DNA of 64,000 bases from Bdellovibrionia bacterium. Lineage in GTDB: Bacteria; Bdellovibrionota; Bdellovibrionia; Bdellovibrionales; JAGQZY01. A model generated the notes under the pieces. That model was not told where the DNA came from and searched no databases. It saw only the letters and a program-made list of their open reading frames with translations. Every line of letters begins with the position of its first letter. The stretch's first letter is position 1. Where the stretch lies: positions 319,758-383,757 of the forward strand of contig JAUICP010000003.1 in assembly GCA_030427805.1 (NCBI GenBank). The letters run 5' to 3'. This document shows, piece after piece, positions 20,722-28,394 of this stretch. The position numbers and the translations under genes were made by a program.

Positions 20722-21249
20722 CTAACTCTCTGTTGCCCTAATAAACTGTAACTTTACCTTTTTCTGGCTCAATACTTTATTATCTTCACTGTAAAACTTA
20801 ACGAGAACTTCCTTTGTTCCCTCAATGTTCGACTTAATCACAAATGGAATAAATTCCCTGTCAAATGAGTCGTCCCAAGCAACCCTCAATGATTGCATGG
20901 TGTTTAGATCCTCCATGGTCTTCGAGTAAAAATAAACCCCCTCCGGCAATTCGATTTCTGCTTCAGCAAACTCTGAAACATTTAATTCCGTCAGTGGAAC
21001 TCGAACTGCGTAAGGCTTATTAACTTCAACTTCGAATCCATCCTGAGATTGCTGAAGCTGAAAGATCCCCAGTGAAACCAATAGAATAGTGAGTGCAAAA
21101 GCTGCAAACCGCCACAAAACCAATCTCCCCCGACTGGCCTGTCGCTCTCTGAGGCGAGCGAGAATCTGACTCTCCACGAAGTCAGGAGCTTGAATCGGCT
21201 CTTTTCTCAACTCTTTATATAAATGTTCAAAATTACTGTCTTTTTCCAT
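20722..21249 (-). CDS. Membrane anti-sigma-like protein
   Basis: A 175-residue protein with a cytoplasmic N terminus (1-42), one TM segment (about 46-64, FAAFALTILLVSLGIF) and an extracytoplasmic beta-rich domain. Position directly after an ECF-type sigma gene and this topology fit an anti-sigma factor. The cytoplasmic part does not show the HxxxCxxC zinc motif of ZAS anti-sigma factors, so if it binds the sigma factor it belongs to another type. The outer domain could sense an envelope signal from the TPR/barrel protein of the same operon. Confidence 0.8.
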   Translation of the reverse strand: MEKDSNFEHLYKELRKEPIQAPDFVESQILARLRERQASRGRLVLWRFAAFALTILLVSLGIFQLQQSQDGFEVEVNKPYAVRVPLTELNVSEFAEAEIELPEGVYFYSKTMEDLNTMQSLRVAWDDSFDREFIPFVIKSNIEGTKEVLVKFYSEDNKVLSQKKVKLQFIRATES

Positions 21250-21284: not shown

Positions 21285-21842
21285 TCACCCAGAAGTTTCA
21301 ATTTCTTCAAAAATATTTTTTAGGAGCTTGCGAGCTCTAAATAGGCGTGATTTCAGGGCACTTTCAGATATCTCCAGGATTTCAGAGGCTTCTGAGTAGG
21401 ATCTTTGTTCCAAATCGACACACACAATGATGATTCTCTCCTTTTCTGGGAGTCTTTTAATAGCCTCCTGCAGGATGAAGACCTGGCGCTCCTTATCTGT
21501 GTCAAATTCTTGGTCCTGAATCTCAGGTACTGAGTCTAAGGCCACAGATGATGTGTTTGCCTTCTTTCTCGTGTGATCGATGAATTGGTTTTTGGCGATC
21601 CGAAAGAGCCAAGACTTTAACTGCTCTGGTTTTTTAATGGTGTCTATTTTGGTGAGTAATTTTAAAAAGGACTCTTGTAGAATATCATTTGCGAGCTCAT
21701 GGTTTCTCGTTAAATGAACGAGAAAGCGAAATAAATCGTCTTTATAATGGTTAATGATCTCCCTGAGAGCATTCTGATCGCCATCTTGTGCATGTTCCAA
21801 AAGCTGCTTGATATCAATTGTACTCAAAGATCTATTCCCCAA
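21285..21842 (-). CDS. RNA polymerase sigma factor, ECF-type
   Basis: A 185-residue sigma-70 family protein with region 2 (about 25-95, including the DILQESFLKLLTKI helix and SWLFRIAKNQFIDHTRKK) and region 4 (about 125-180, LPEKERIIIVCVDLEQRSY and the HTH SEASEILEISESALKSRLFRAR). Regions 1 and 3 are absent, as in ECF factors. The gene overlaps the 3' end of the upstream TPR gene by 19 bases and is followed by the anti-sigma-like gene. It probably directs transcription of an envelope or stress regulon that may include this operon. Confidence 0.94.
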   Translation of the reverse strand: MGNRSLSTIDIKQLLEHAQDGDQNALREIINHYKDDLFRFLVHLTRNHELANDILQESFLKLLTKIDTIKKPEQLKSWLFRIAKNQFIDHTRKKANTSSVALDSVPEIQDQEFDTDKERQVFILQEAIKRLPEKERIIIVCVDLEQRSYSEASEILEISESALKSRLFRARKLLKNIFEEIETSG

Positions 21843-23374
21843 TTAAAGGAAGCCCCAAACTTCCAGCGCACAAAATTACTATCGATTCCTACAGAGGATA
21901 CCATAGTTGAGCTTCTGTCTCTATAGGACACATTAAAAGAAATTGAAGCGTCGTAATCAATCTGAAAATCTATATTAGTGTAGAAGTCTAAATTTGTATC
22001 CCGACGAACCTTATCTTCTGGAAAGAAATTGGATTTAAATCGATAGAGACTGTATCGAAGCCCACTCCTTATATAGGCTTTTTCAAAGGTAAAGGTGCCC
22101 GAACCTTCGAATTCAAAGCCCTCGTAAGCCTGTGGGATCTCAAATCCATCTCCATCAAAGGTACCAGCTTCTGTATCTCGATAGCCCCCTTGAAAGTAGG
22201 CTGTCACTTTTGCCGGAACCCTGAGTGAAGTTCCCACGAAAAGCTCTCGCCCTCCCAAGTAGTCGAATTCGTTATTTTGTGCAGTGATCAAATCATAGTT
22301 AACAATAAAGCCAAGACTGGCTTGGGTAAAAGTACGAATGGTGTGACTGAATAGCCCGGTCCGCAGCACATAAGGATCGTAATCAAACAAAGAGTAGTTT
22401 AATTTTGGTGTCAAGTTGAGGTCAACGAGACCGAGTGGAATAACAACAGGTGCCCGAATATCGATATCGGCATAATCCTGGCCATCGAGCTGAGAAAAGA
22501 ACTCTCCGTTCAGTGAAAATACTCCTGCGTAAAGTAGCCCCTTAGAGGTCTGATTAAAGTGCGAATAACTGGCGAGTACCGTCTGTCCGCTAACACCCGA
22601 AGGATCCGCCTTTTCGGTATAGAAATTTGAATTGTACATCTGCTCAATACTGAGCTGTAGTCGATTCCCCTGGCGCTTTTGGCTCCGCTCGATATTAGCA
22701 ATGATCGAATCAATATCTTGAACATTATCGGAAGAGTCATAGCTACTTCTTGCTTTTCGCAAAAAGTAACGACTCCTCTTTGTTAAACCTCTTCTTCTTT
22801 CACTGAGTCCCAAAAGGTACAGGGATTCACCGCTATTGCTCAGTCCATTGGCCCTGCGAAACTTCATAGAAGCCTCTTTGTAATTGCGGCGCTTAAACTC
22901 TTCGATCCCCTGAAGTACAATTTCGTCGTGGAGAATCTCGCGACTGATCTTCAATTCTCGATTGAGGCCTGTGAAGCCTTTTTTAACTCTCAATTTCTTT
23001 AATAGGCGATAGGCCTTCTCGATCTTTGCTACTCGGGCGTAGGCTCTCACTAAATAAATCCGAGCGGGATATTTAAGGGGTGACGAACTTTTATGCACTT
23101 TTAAATAGTACTTAATGGCAAGACTATACTTCTTCACCATAAAAGCAGAGTTTGCCAAATTAAATTGAATGAGAGGTTGGCCGGGATACTTCTTATTAAT
23201 CTCTCTAAATCCTTTAAGGGCTCGTCCCATTTGACCTTCTTGCGCCCACGTTAATGAACTCTGCAAGAGTCGACGACTCCGAGAGTCCATTGGTTGGGCT
23301 CTGGCTTCGTTCACAATAAGAGAAGAGACCAGTAAGAAACTTACCAGTCCCAAAATAAGACGCCTTAAAAACAC
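21824..23374 (-). CDS. Exported TPR protein with outer-membrane barrel-like C terminus
   Basis: A 516-residue protein with a GTG start, a signal peptide (about 1-27, ending EARAQ), TPR-like helical repeats at about 30-215 (GRALKGFREINKKYP, SLAIKYYLKVHK, KEASMKFRRANGLSN) and a C-terminal part of about 290 residues with alternating aromatic beta strands that resembles an outer-membrane barrel, ending in WGIDL. It is the first gene of the sigma-factor operon. A link between envelope assembly and the sigma/anti-sigma pair is suggested by this order. The nearest promoter puts transcription start at or near the GTG. Confidence 0.85.
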   Translation of the reverse strand: MFLRRLILGLVSFLLVSSLIVNEARAQPMDSRSRRLLQSSLTWAQEGQMGRALKGFREINKKYPGQPLIQFNLANSAFMVKKYSLAIKYYLKVHKSSSPLKYPARIYLVRAYARVAKIEKAYRLLKKLRVKKGFTGLNRELKISREILHDEIVLQGIEEFKRRNYKEASMKFRRANGLSNSGESLYLLGLSERRRGLTKRSRYFLRKARSSYDSSDNVQDIDSIIANIERSQKRQGNRLQLSIEQMYNSNFYTEKADPSGVSGQTVLASYSHFNQTSKGLLYAGVFSLNGEFFSQLDGQDYADIDIRAPVVIPLGLVDLNLTPKLNYSLFDYDPYVLRTGLFSHTIRTFTQASLGFIVNYDLITAQNNEFDYLGGRELFVGTSLRVPAKVTAYFQGGYRDTEAGTFDGDGFEIPQAYEGFEFEGSGTFTFEKAYIRSGLRYSLYRFKSNFFPEDKVRRDTNLDFYTNIDFQIDYDASISFNVSYRDRSSTMVSSVGIDSNFVRWKFGASFNWGIDL

Positions 23375-23385: not shown

Positions 23386-23457
23386 GGTAACTATTGATAA
23401 AAAATTAATTGCATTTTTTTTGAAACTTTTCGAGAGACCTTCGTCTAGTATACAAAG

Positions 23458-23579
23458 AGACAGCATGGAACTTTGGGATTCCTTAAAAGAATCCCGCTTA
23501 ACAGACTTACAAACTCTTTCCTTCTATTTAACTATACCTTTTTACTACCCCAAGACCCATTTTATGGGTCTTTTTTTTT
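23458..23579 (+). ncRNA. Small RNA candidate A
   Basis: The plus strand between the TPR operon and the metallopeptidase gene shows a full small-RNA plan: a promoter-like region (TTGAAA at 23420, TAGTAT at 23446), a 7-bp hairpin GGGATTC/GAATCCC (23475-23495), a 24-base unpaired stretch at 23519-23542 beginning TCCTTCTATTTAACTATACC, and a Rho-independent terminator (23552-23579). The 24-base stretch is repeated exactly in candidate B at 25303-25326, also just before a terminator. The 5' end is approximate. The promoter spacing is not ideal. No reading frame with a ribosome site is present. Confidence 0.65.
23552..23579 (+). terminator. Terminator of small RNA candidate A
   Basis: AGACCCAT, TTT loop, ATGGGTCT, then nine T residues: an 8-bp stem with a full T tract on the plus strand. 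Confidence 0.92.
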
Positions 23580-23653
23580 GCCCTTTTAGGATTGGTCGCA
23601 CAAAATTTTGGGCTTTGGTCAACTCTGTCTTTAGTCTCATGTCTCTCAGATTT

Positions 23654-25045
23654 TTAATCCTCTACAGGACCACTTGAAGCCGCAGGATCGACTCCACTGC
23701 CATTATCTTGAAAGGGATGGCAGGGATTCACTGGGACTGAACCGGCAAAACGACTACAGCCAAGGTACTCTTGTAACTGAGGGCTACCGCCAAGGATTCG
23801 ATTGAGGCGAACATCGTTGTCCGCATGACCGTGATCACCAACAGTTGAAGCTCCCAAATCGTTACAATAGAGCCCTTGAAACTCTCTTTGCAAGAGTCGG
23901 AGGGATTCCGTCTCGGACAAATTGTTATTACGAAGATATCTAACAGTAGCGGCCACACCGACGTAGTCGGCGGTCAATTCAACCATGCTATTATTAACAT
24001 CGTCAGCAATGGATCTGTGGCCCTGCCCTGAGTGGAGATCTGCACCCAACTCCTCTTGAATACATTGCACATAACTCGGGTGATAATTATCCCTCGATCG
24101 ATCGTGATCAAAAAGATGTCCTAGCTCGTGGTGATTCGAAAAAACGTTCATATGCTCTTGGTTGCTGAACAAAACATAGTTATCCGGGCATCGGAGCATC
24201 CGCCCAGTTCCAGTTTCTATTGAAGCATTATTCACAAATAATCTTCGCGTACTATTACAACTCACCTGATCGCTTGAAGCAAGGTTCAAGCTAGCCCCAC
24301 TGAGACGAGAATCTATTTCATCGGCACTCCCCGCGTACCCTAACTCCATAAGCGTCTCTCGCATATTGTCTCGTTGAGCCGAGAATTGAGCCTGATGTCG
24401 AGCGAGTCCCGCGGCAATTTCCTCTTGAAAGAGGCTTCGCATTGAAGCGGTCAGTTCCTCGTTGATTTGCTCCAGATCAAGTACATTAGTTATTCCGAAG
24501 TCAGTATTAGCTTGATTGAGAAGCGGGTCCGCAGAAACGATCTCCGAAAAAAAAGTCTTTGATTCTTCTGCACTAAATCCATTTATTGCCTGAAATTGCC
24601 TTTGAATCACATGAGCGTATTGACCAATCTCCTTCTCTGGAATCATTAAGTAATCAGTTGCGACTGTATTTGCATATGAATTATACATACCAGTAAAATC
24701 AATTTCACTCTGAGGACGACCCGCAAGCTCTGGAGATAATTCTAAATAGGTTTGGACAATTCGACGACCCAAGTAGAGCCTAAACTCACCGTTAAGCCCC
24801 ATGAGTTCTTCGAGAGTGGGTTCAAAGCCCCTTTCATTCATAAACTCAGCAAAACTAGGATGCCTTTCTTTGAGACGGTCTACGATCTCAGTGATTCGGT
24901 TTCGTAGCGCCGGATCTGTGTTGTTTGAATTTTGATTACAAATAAAAGCCCGTGGATTTTGACAAAATGATTGGGCCGTAAAATTCTGAGCTTGGGAAAT
25001 ATTATGATATAGCAGTACGAAAAGTACTATATATAGGACTCTCAC
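23654..25045 (-). CDS. Secreted putative zinc metallopeptidase (HELGH)
   Basis: A 463-residue protein with a signal peptide (1-19, ending ISQAQ). The zinc motif HELGH is near residue 303, followed by FDHD, and a downstream segment VELTADYVGVAATVRYL near 375 can supply the third ligand (Glu or Asp). The motif and spacing are those of a gluzincin-like peptidase, but the family is not one I can name. The C-terminal region has several cysteines. It probably acts outside the cytoplasm on proteins or peptidoglycan peptides; the substrate is unknown. The gene is flanked by two small-RNA candidates on the opposite strand. Confidence 0.86.
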   Translation of the reverse strand: MRVLYIVLFVLLYHNISQAQNFTAQSFCQNPRAFICNQNSNNTDPALRNRITEIVDRLKERHPSFAEFMNERGFEPTLEELMGLNGEFRLYLGRRIVQTYLELSPELAGRPQSEIDFTGMYNSYANTVATDYLMIPEKEIGQYAHVIQRQFQAINGFSAEESKTFFSEIVSADPLLNQANTDFGITNVLDLEQINEELTASMRSLFQEEIAAGLARHQAQFSAQRDNMRETLMELGYAGSADEIDSRLSGASLNLASSDQVSCNSTRRLFVNNASIETGTGRMLRCPDNYVLFSNQEHMNVFSNHHELGHLFDHDRSRDNYHPSYVQCIQEELGADLHSGQGHRSIADDVNNSMVELTADYVGVAATVRYLRNNNLSETESLRLLQREFQGLYCNDLGASTVGDHGHADNDVRLNRILGGSPQLQEYLGCSRFAGSVPVNPCHPFQDNGSGVDPAASSGPVED

Positions 25046-25257
25046 TCTTCTACTCTCACTCTCTTGACCCTTTTAACTTGCTCTTTTATTTTATGCGACA
25101 ATTTGTAAAGCCTCGAATCCACAGAGCGAAAGTCTCATAATAAGACATGAAAGAGCATTTAAACTCTCTCAAAGGCAAAAGCCGAATCGGAAGAAATAGA
25201 AATCCATTTTTTTAAAAAACTTTCGCAACGATTTCATCGGCGCTCGTCTGATAAACA

Positions 25258-25364
25258 GAGGGCCCGAATCCAAGGCTCTCTTAGAAGTTTTAGCACGAAC
25301 TATCCTTCTATTTAACTATACCTTTTCTACCAATCTGGCCCATGCACATGGGCCATTTTTTTTT
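25258..25364 (+). ncRNA. Small RNA candidate B
   Basis: This is the homologue of candidate A: TCGTCT then GATAAA (25251-25256) as a -10-like box, an imperfect AGAGGCC/GGCTCT hairpin (25258-25279), the same 24 bases at 25303-25326 as candidate A, and a terminator at 25336-25364. Both have about the same length, with a 5' hairpin, an unpaired conserved stretch and a terminator. The hairpins and terminators differ in sequence, so only the exposed stretch has been conserved, as expected for a base-pairing seed. The 5' end is approximate. Confidence 0.62.
25336..25364 (+). terminator. Terminator of small RNA candidate B
   Basis: TGGCCCATG and CATGGGCCA form a 9-bp stem with a two-base gap, followed by nine T residues on the plus strand. 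Confidence 0.92.
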
Positions 25365-25483
25365 GCAGTCGACTGGGGACATAAATTGTCTGCACTGTCT
25401 ACAACCTAGTCAGGCAGAAAAAAAATAATCAAATTCTTGAAACTTTATGACTATGCTTCGTCTTGTCCATAGCAAGGGACTGG

Positions 25484-25525
25484 CACGTATCTACTACTAC
25501 CTTCACAACATTGAGGTGATACGTG
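25484..25525 (+). promoter_or_regulatory. Inverted repeat covering ribosome site and GTG start
   Basis: CACGTATC (25484-25491) is the exact complement of GATACGTG (25518-25525), whose last three bases are the GTG start of the following lipoprotein. Inside, ACCTT (25499-25503) can pair with GAGGT of the Shine-Dalgarno. The folded leader would hide both signals. Confidence 0.5.
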
Positions 25526-26230
25526 TATCAATTAAAGACATCCATTTTAGTATTAGCATTAGGATTCATTCTTGCCGGCTGTAATAATGACAAGAAGTTT
25601 AGTCGCGCCGAAACTTTGCTGAGTAACAGTGAAGAGAGTGTCCTCGAAATTCCAATTGAAATAGATGAAGAGATCGAAGAAAGAGTCGAAGAGACACCTG
25701 AACACATTCCTACGGCAAAAAAAGAAGAAAAAGAATGTAAGAAAGATAAGAAGGGCCCACGAAACTCCCATAGATCGAATCATCGACATGCCAATAGGCA
25801 CAAGAGATTTTCAAATGGCTGTACTAAAGCTCAACTCTCCGACATCAAGCTCTACATCAAAGGACTTATGCTCAAAGACGAGCACGGTGATTTCGAATTA
25901 ATTGATATTGAAAATCAAAAAGATATCATCGGCTTAAAACAAGGGATCGCATTTAAATCTCCACTTGATGGAAACTTTGATCAAATGTACGTCGCCGTCG
26001 ACCTATCGAAGAGTTCGGTTTCCACTTCGCGCGGAGGCATTTTCAAGTTAAAAACTCCTAAAATTAATCACCGAATTATTAAACTCGAAAAACAAAAAAA
26101 TATCAGTTTGCTCAACGGTCAATCCTATAATCTACAACTTGATGTCTCACCCGAGGACAACCTCGTGCAAAACAATGCTCACTGTTTTTTAAAACCTGTA
26201 GTTAATAATAGTGAACTACAGGAGGAATAA
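25523..26230 (+). CDS. Lipoprotein, DUF4382-like
   Basis: A 235-residue protein starting at GTG, with GAGGTGAT upstream. The lipobox is LAGC (Cys20). A Glu/Lys/His-rich linker (about 35-95) leads to a beta-rich domain (about 98-235) that ends with a strand like the DUF4382 C terminus (CFLKPVVNN). A distant relative in this window is the lipoprotein at 30733-31383, with the same domain end (L..G....L.L...C...P). DUF4382 assignment is tentative. It precedes a PilZ-like gene by 31 bases, so the two are probably co-transcribed. Confidence 0.82.
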   Translation: MYQLKTSILVLALGFILAGCNNDKKFSRAETLLSNSEESVLEIPIEIDEEIEERVEETPEHIPTAKKEEKECKKDKKGPRNSHRSNHRHANRHKRFSNGCTKAQLSDIKLYIKGLMLKDEHGDFELIDIENQKDIIGLKQGIAFKSPLDGNFDQMYVAVDLSKSSVSTSRGGIFKLKTPKINHRIIKLEKQKNISLLNGQSYNLQLDVSPEDNLVQNNAHCFLKPVVNNSELQEE

Positions 26231-28307: not shown

Positions 28308-28394
28308 GCGCGTGTGCTGAAATTGGTAGACAGGCTAGATTGAGGGTCTAGTGTTCGCAAGGACGTGGAGGTTCAAGTCCTCTCACGCGCACCA
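28308..28394 (+). tRNA. tRNA-Leu, anticodon GAG
   Basis: An 87-base tRNA with a 7-bp acceptor stem GCGCGTG/CACGCGC, a long variable arm typical of tRNA-Leu, the T-loop GTTCAAGTC, anticodon loop TTGAGGG (anticodon GAG, reading CUU and CUC) and an encoded CCA end. Confidence 0.97.

What the first reader, a model, noticed from the sequence alone, without database searches (positions are those of the whole stretch)
23420..25364. Twin small-RNA candidates sharing an exact 24-base exposed stretch
Two intergenic plus-strand units (about 23458-23579 and 25258-25364) share the same plan: a -10-like box preceded by TCGTCT, a 5' hairpin, an identical 24-base stretch (23519-23542 and 25303-25326, beginning TCCTTCTATTTAACTATACC) and a strong terminator. 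Hairpin and terminator sequences differ while the unpaired middle is identical, which is what base-pairing small RNAs look like. They flank one secreted metallopeptidase gene. I know of no described family with this core.
Basis: partly seen in the sequence, partly recalled or inferred. Interest (0 to 1): 0.68.

Follow-up and report, generated by a model that had tools for sequence, protein, structure and literature searches.

The report
Twin sigma-linked small RNA genes
Two small non-coding RNA genes with the same 24-base core sit beside a stress-type sigma factor that probably switches them on, much like the envelope-stress small RNAs of E. coli, but in predatory-lineage bacteria that lack the usual RNA helper protein Hfq.

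Summary
A 24-nt stretch, TCCTTCTATTTAACTATACCTTTT, is identical at 23519-23542 and 25303-25326. Each copy sits between a 5' hairpin and an intrinsic terminator, and 3 mismatches find no other copy in the window. The 4.5-Mb genome has no other real copy: the one further 3-mismatch match lies in a coding sequence. One other species (same genus) has both units in the same places. The transcribed parts differ there at 4 of 232 sites, against 47 of 298 in neighbouring intergenic DNA (Fisher P = 8e-9). All four changes are in loops or unpaired positions, or keep a pair as G-U. The core is absent (<=2 mismatches) from 367 other genomes of the phylum, from Rfam and from viral contigs.

TCGTCT is itself the -10 element of an ECF-sigma promoter (AAC-N15-CGTCT), present at both units and before the next lipoprotein gene. 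An ECF sigma gene with a putative anti-sigma gene lies about 1.6 kb away, in the operon that diverges from unit 1.

Best reading: paralogous sRNAs made by an ECF sigma and sharing a base-pairing core, analogous to MicA/RybB or FoxI/FoxJ. No Hfq was found in the order. Target prediction was not better than chance, so the base-pairing step is inferred.

The parts
23424..23446 (+). ECF-type promoter of sRNA 1: (TG)AAAC -35 element, 15-nt spacer, CGTCT -10 element (AACTTTTCGAGAGACCTTCGTCT)
   Evidence: invariant in G004 over 23420-23456; exact GAAACTT-N13-CGTCT occurs only twice in G000, both in this locus
23455..23580 (+). sRNA 1 (about 125 nt): short leader, 5' hairpin GGGATTC/GAATCCC (about 23474-23496), core, terminator
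   Evidence: anatomy; 1 substitution in 124 nt against G004. The 5' end is inferred from promoter spacing, not measured
23519..23542 (+). shared core, copy 1 (TCCTTCTATTTAACTATACCTTTT), mostly unpaired
   Evidence: 0 substitutions in G004
23552..23580 (+). intrinsic terminator of sRNA 1
25227..25249 (+). ECF-type promoter of sRNA 2: AAC-N15-CGTCT (AACGATTTCATCGGCGCTCGTCT)
   Evidence: in G004 both elements kept while three spacer bases changed (25241, 25243, 25244)
25257..25364 (+). sRNA 2 (about 108 nt): 5'-terminal hairpin GAGGGCC/GGCTCTC (25258-25280), core, terminator
   Evidence: 3 substitutions in G004: two in loops, one C-G to U-G
25303..25326 (+). shared core, copy 2; last 16 nt (TTTAACTATACCTTTT) predicted open, nt 3-8 paired with 25284-25289
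25336..25364 (+). intrinsic terminator of sRNA 2
25441..25463 (+). third ECF-type promoter (AACTTTATGACTATGCTTCGTCT), upstream of the lipoprotein gene
   Evidence: only spacer bases differ in G004
25523..26230 (+). lipoprotein-like gene (GTG start, lipobox AGC), likely regulon member
21285..21842 (-). ECF sigma factor (closest model SigM subfamily, below that model's cut-off; over cut-off for sigma70-ECF)
   Evidence: Pfam Sigma70_r2/r4_2; TIGR02937/TIGR02950
20722..21249 (-). putative anti-sigma factor: N-terminal cytoplasmic part, one transmembrane helix, C-terminal domain
   Evidence: position after the sigma gene, topology read from sequence, weak match to a putative anti-sigmaE model E=0.011
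21824..23374 (-). TPR / predicted outer-membrane protein, first gene of the sigma operon, divergent from sRNA 1
23654..25045 (-). secreted HExxH metallopeptidase-like gene lying between the two sRNA genes; not in a known family

Best explanation
The locus encodes two paralogous small RNAs that are the non-coding output of the neighbouring ECF sigma factor. When an envelope signal releases the sigma from its putative membrane anti-sigma, RNA polymerase starts at the AAC-N15-CGTCT promoters of sRNA 1, sRNA 2 and the adjacent lipoprotein gene. Each RNA ends at its own terminator. Both carry the same exposed C/U/A-rich core, of which the last 16 nt (UUUAACUAUACCUUUU) are open in both predicted folds, and which would pair with ribosome-binding regions of a shared set of mRNAs to repress them without Hfq. 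Shown by sequence and conservation: two structured, conserved, non-coding units with matching promoters and terminators beside an ECF sigma gene. Inferred: transcription, dependence on this sigma, base-pairing as the mechanism, and the targets.
For: Identical core, only two copies in each genome. Both units conserved in the sister species with 4/232 changes against 47/298 in flanking intergenic DNA, P=8e-9, all four in loops or unpaired positions or kept as G-U. Outside the core the two paralogs have diverged, so the core is the part kept between them. AAC-N15-CGTCT at both units and at the lipoprotein gene; spacer bases change while the elements stay. Exact GAAACTT-N13-CGTCT occurs only twice in 4.5 Mb, both here. 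ECF promoters are described as AAC at -35 and CGT at -10 (PMC8103513). ECF sigma gene plus anti-sigma-like gene adjacent; the sigma ortholog (E<=1e-100) and the sRNAs are both limited to the same two genomes. No sigma-70-type promoter at the units. Precedent: sigmaE-dependent sRNA pairs with similar seeds and shared targets (PMC11005410).
Against: No expression data. Predicted pairing of the core with 1,120 initiation regions (28% of the genome) is not stronger than for shuffled cores, and exported proteins are not enriched. Two of the better predicted sites (window about 3169(-) and the metallopeptidase leader) are broken in the sister species. The sigma operon itself shows no matching promoter, although autoregulation is usual for ECF sigmas. 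The relaxed promoter motif is not enriched genome-wide over its control. Conservation rests on one close species.
Confidence: 0.68

Rival explanations
1. The two units are real sRNAs, but the shared core is a binding site for a protein (a sponge or RNA-chaperone site) rather than an antisense seed.
For: The core is identical in two otherwise diverged RNAs, no targets emerge above chance, and no Hfq was found to assist pairing.
Against: A 24-nt invariant single-stranded stretch is longer than typical single-protein RNA motifs, and it is not repeated within an RNA as in CsrB-type sponges. Pairing sRNAs without Hfq are known in other bacteria (general knowledge).
Confidence: 0.15
2. sRNA 2, and perhaps sRNA 1, are leader or attenuator transcripts acting only in cis (unit 2 upstream of the lipoprotein gene; unit 1 facing the 3' end of the metallopeptidase gene).
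For: Unit 2 lies 160 bp upstream of the lipoprotein gene on the same strand, and its terminator could be conditional.
Against: The lipoprotein gene has its own conserved ECF-type promoter downstream of the terminator. Unit 1 has no downstream gene on its strand. The terminators are strong and show no alternative antiterminator pairing in the folds.
Confidence: 0.08
3. The core is a DNA-level element (binding or recombination site) or a leftover of a recent duplication without RNA function.
For: The metallopeptidase gene between the two copies is a mosaic, strongly diverged in its middle between the two species, as recombination would give.
Against: The whole transcribed units, not only the core, are conserved, with changes in loops and unpaired positions. 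The copies are in the same strand and position relative to promoter and terminator. Paralogous units differ widely outside the core, so the duplication is old.
Confidence: 0.05
4. The units encode short peptides.
For: In unit 1 a frame MELWDSLKESRLTDLQTLSFYLTIP... runs through the core.
Against: That frame runs past the terminator in unit 1. In unit 2 the same frame has a TAG 12 nt before the core and no start codon between.
Confidence: 0.02

Closest known systems
MicA / RybB / MicL (sigmaE-dependent sRNAs of enterobacteria)
   Same: Small intergenic RNAs with an ECF-sigma promoter and intrinsic terminator, more than one per sigma, thought to form the repressing arm of an envelope-stress sigma (PMC8103513).
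   Different: No sequence relation (no Rfam match). The shared core is internal, just before the terminator, whereas MicA/RybB seeds are at the 5' end (own knowledge). The genes sit beside the sigma operon. No Hfq found. Targets unknown here.
FoxI / FoxJ of Fusobacterium nucleatum
   Same: Two sRNAs under one ECF sigma (sigmaE) with similar seed regions and overlapping targets (PMC11005410).
   Different: Fox seeds are C-stretches and similar, not identical; here a 24-nt A/U/C-rich core is identical and the two genes are neighbours. No sequence relation.
VrrA / MicV of Vibrio cholerae
   Same: Two sigmaE sRNAs sharing targets (cited in PMC11005410).
   Different: Different sequence, host with Hfq; the shared-seed detail is own knowledge and was not checked here.
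Attack-phase sRNAs and merRNA of Bdellovibrio bacteriovorus
   Same: Intergenic sRNAs of the same broad bacterial group, three of them under an alternative sigma (FliA) (PMC3627812).
   Different: Other sizes, promoters and lineage; no relation in sequence (core absent from 367 other genomes of the phylum); merRNA holds a c-di-GMP riboswitch.

Membership tests
ECF-sigma-dependent base-pairing sRNA (functional class) | Promoter with ECF -35 AAC and -10 CGT(C) at normal spacing | tested here: met
   AAC-N15-CGTCT at 23424 and 25227, kept in the sister species
ECF-sigma-dependent base-pairing sRNA (functional class) | A cognate ECF sigma with anti-sigma in the genome | tested here: met
   ECF sigma 21285-21842(-); the anti-sigma assignment is weaker (E=0.011, position and topology)
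ECF-sigma-dependent base-pairing sRNA (functional class) | Short non-coding transcript with intrinsic terminator, conserved | tested here: met
   (prediction and conservation; transcription itself not tested)
ECF-sigma-dependent base-pairing sRNA (functional class) | Transcription depends on the sigma | not testable with these tools
   needs a sigma mutant or overexpression
ECF-sigma-dependent base-pairing sRNA (functional class) | Single-stranded seed complementary to target mRNA initiation regions | tested here: inconclusive
   core largely exposed, but no excess of pairing over shuffled cores in 28% of the genome
MicA/RybB (enterobacterial Hfq-dependent sRNA families) | Sequence/structure match to the Rfam model | tested here: not met
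   no Rfam match in the window other than a tRNA
MicA/RybB (enterobacterial Hfq-dependent sRNA families) | Acts with Hfq | tested here: not met
   no Hfq (PF17209) in the genus or in 60 genomes of the order, while controls ring
CsrB/RsmY-type protein sponge | Several repeated GGA hairpin-loop motifs in one RNA | tested here: not met
   one core per RNA, no repeated motif within a unit

The most novel reading that the evidence does not exclude
A lineage-specific ECF sigma whose main output is local and non-coding: a self-contained module of sigma, anti-sigma and twin sRNAs with an identical internal core, regulating envelope mRNAs without Hfq in a predatory-bacteria lineage.
Probability: 0.3. 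Interest if true: 0.65.

Novelty: new member of a known kind. Interest (0 to 1): 0.5.

Why it matters
sRNAs as the repressing arm of an envelope-stress sigma are known from Hfq-bearing proteobacteria and from Fusobacterium. This would be a further, apparently independent case in Bdellovibrionota, where no Hfq was found in the order, and the first reported for this lineage as far as the library searched shows. Because sigma, anti-sigma, both sRNAs and one lipoprotein gene are neighbours, the circuit can be tested in one cloned fragment. The identical core in two diverged RNAs marks exactly which bases to mutate.

Tried and rejected
(1) Dispersed repeat: rejected; two copies only, and the third fuzzy copy (G000 C6:398648) lies in a coding sequence. 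(2) mRNA 3' end: rejected, own promoters. (3) Small ORF through the core: rejected on frames. (4) Genome-wide regulon by motif: GAAACTT-N13-CGTCT with one mismatch gives 21 hits against 38 for the reversed control, mostly inside ORFs, so no further regulon members are claimed. (5) Distant homologs by covariance model over 143 genomes: none outside the genus (the automatic model had only 6 base pairs, so it is weak). (6) Targets: duplex energies, contiguous complements and the 16-nt open part, each against shuffled cores: no excess. The best single candidate, a lipoprotein at G000 C6:616037 with near-continuous pairing over its Shine-Dalgarno (-23.4 kcal/mol), is fully conserved in the sister species, but 23% of shuffled cores do as well. 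(7) Control of the metallopeptidase between the units by the core: the pairing site in its leader is changed in the sister species.

Full report
WHAT IS THERE. The 24-nt stretch TCCTTCTATTTAACTATACCTTTT is identical at 23519-23542 and 25303-25326. Allowing 3 mismatches finds no other copy in the window. In the 4.5-Mb genome it finds one further match, inside a coding sequence. Each copy lies in an intergenic unit read on the + strand: promoter-like elements, a 5' hairpin, the core, and a strong intrinsic terminator (23552-23572 and 25336-25355).

CONSERVATION. The only other genome of the genus available (G004; the same 13-kb contig appears in GTDB as a Bdellovibrionia MAG, JAUHWN010000124.1) carries both units in the same places. 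Over the transcribed parts 4 of 232 positions differ. In the adjoining non-transcribed intergenic stretches 47 of 298 differ (Fisher P = 8e-9). The four changes are an unpaired base in unit 1, two loop bases in unit 2 and one C-G to U-G change in the unit-2 5' stem (with the folds). Between the two units in one genome the rest of the RNA has drifted while the core has not. The terminator stems keep CCCAT/ATGGG with the flanking pairs changed on both sides (A-U to G-C, A-U to U-A; read). This is the pattern of an old duplication whose core is held by function. Between species the core is no more conserved than the rest of the RNA (0 of 48 against 4 of 184); its special status comes from the paralog comparison.

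DISTRIBUTION. With up to 2 mismatches the core is absent from 367 other genomes of the phylum. A covariance model finds nothing outside the genus. Rfam has no match, and viral contigs none. The ortholog of the neighbouring sigma factor is also confined to these two genomes among 60 of the order; the next best matches have E around 1e-30.

PROMOTERS AND SIGMA. Both units have AAC, 15 bases, CGTCT: 23424-23446 and 25227-25249. A third such site, 25441-25463, stands 59 bases before the start codon of a lipoprotein-like gene. The stricter form GAAACTT-N13-CGTCT occurs exactly twice in the 4.5-Mb genome, both in this locus. AAC at -35 and CGT at -10 are the hallmark elements of ECF-sigma promoters (PMC8103513). 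In the sister species the elements are kept while spacer bases change at unit 2 and at the lipoprotein promoter. No sigma-70-type promoter is predicted at the units. The divergent operon next to unit 1 encodes a TPR/outer-membrane-like protein, an ECF sigma (Pfam and NCBIfam; best model SigM subfamily but below its cut-off) and a protein with anti-sigma topology (weak model match). The sigma operon's own promoter region has no such motif, and the one-mismatch motif is not enriched genome-wide over its control, so the regulon beyond this locus is undetermined.

HOW IT PROBABLY WORKS. By analogy with MicA/RybB (PMC8103513) and with FoxI/FoxJ, a sigmaE sRNA pair with similar seeds and shared targets (PMC11005410), the two RNAs would be the repressing arm of this sigma, pairing through the core with mRNAs. 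In unit 1 most of the core is open. In unit 2 bases 3-8 are predicted paired, leaving UUUAACUAUACCUUUU open, so this 16-nt part is the likeliest seed. No Hfq was found in the genus or in 60 genomes of the order although the search finds it in control genomes; pairing would have to proceed without it or with another chaperone.

WHAT DID NOT WORK. Target prediction on 1,120 genes from 1.26 Mb of the genome gave no excess over shuffled cores by energy, by contiguous complement, or by enrichment of exported proteins. The strongest single site, at the ribosome-binding site of a lipoprotein gene at G000 C6:616037, is fully conserved in the sister species, but about a quarter of shuffled cores find something as strong. 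It is a lead, not a result. Two other candidate sites are altered in the sister species.

VERDICT. It is a new sequence family of a known kind. The base-pairing mechanism and the targets remain unproven.

Noticed in passing
window 23654-25045 (-): The metallopeptidase-like gene between the two sRNAs is a mosaic: its ends match the sister species at about the level of the flanking DNA (roughly 93%), while about 1.1 kb in the middle (23811-24938) is so diverged that blastn does not align it (36% differences over the gene); the flanks are syntenic. This suggests replacement or rapid diversification of the central part.
   Followed up: partly
G000 C3:289221 (+), locus L067: A paralog of the metallopeptidase (124 of 490 aligned residues identical, same NFTAQ.FC start after the signal peptide) about 55 kb away; its leader holds TAGAAGGAA, complementary to the 5' part of the core.
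   Followed up: partly
window 25441-25463 (+): Third ECF-type promoter, almost the same as that of sRNA 1 (TGAAACTTT...CTTCGTCT), in front of a lipoprotein-like gene (25523-26230).
   Followed up: partly
window 20722-21249 (-): The putative anti-sigma gene is the most conserved coding stretch of the locus between the two species (7 of 528 bases differ, against 30 of 558 in the sigma gene).
   Followed up: no
order-level genomes: No Hfq (PF17209) detected in any of 60 genomes of this order, including complete ones.
   Followed up: partly
window 28308-28391 (+): A tRNA gene, the only Rfam match in the window.
   Followed up: no
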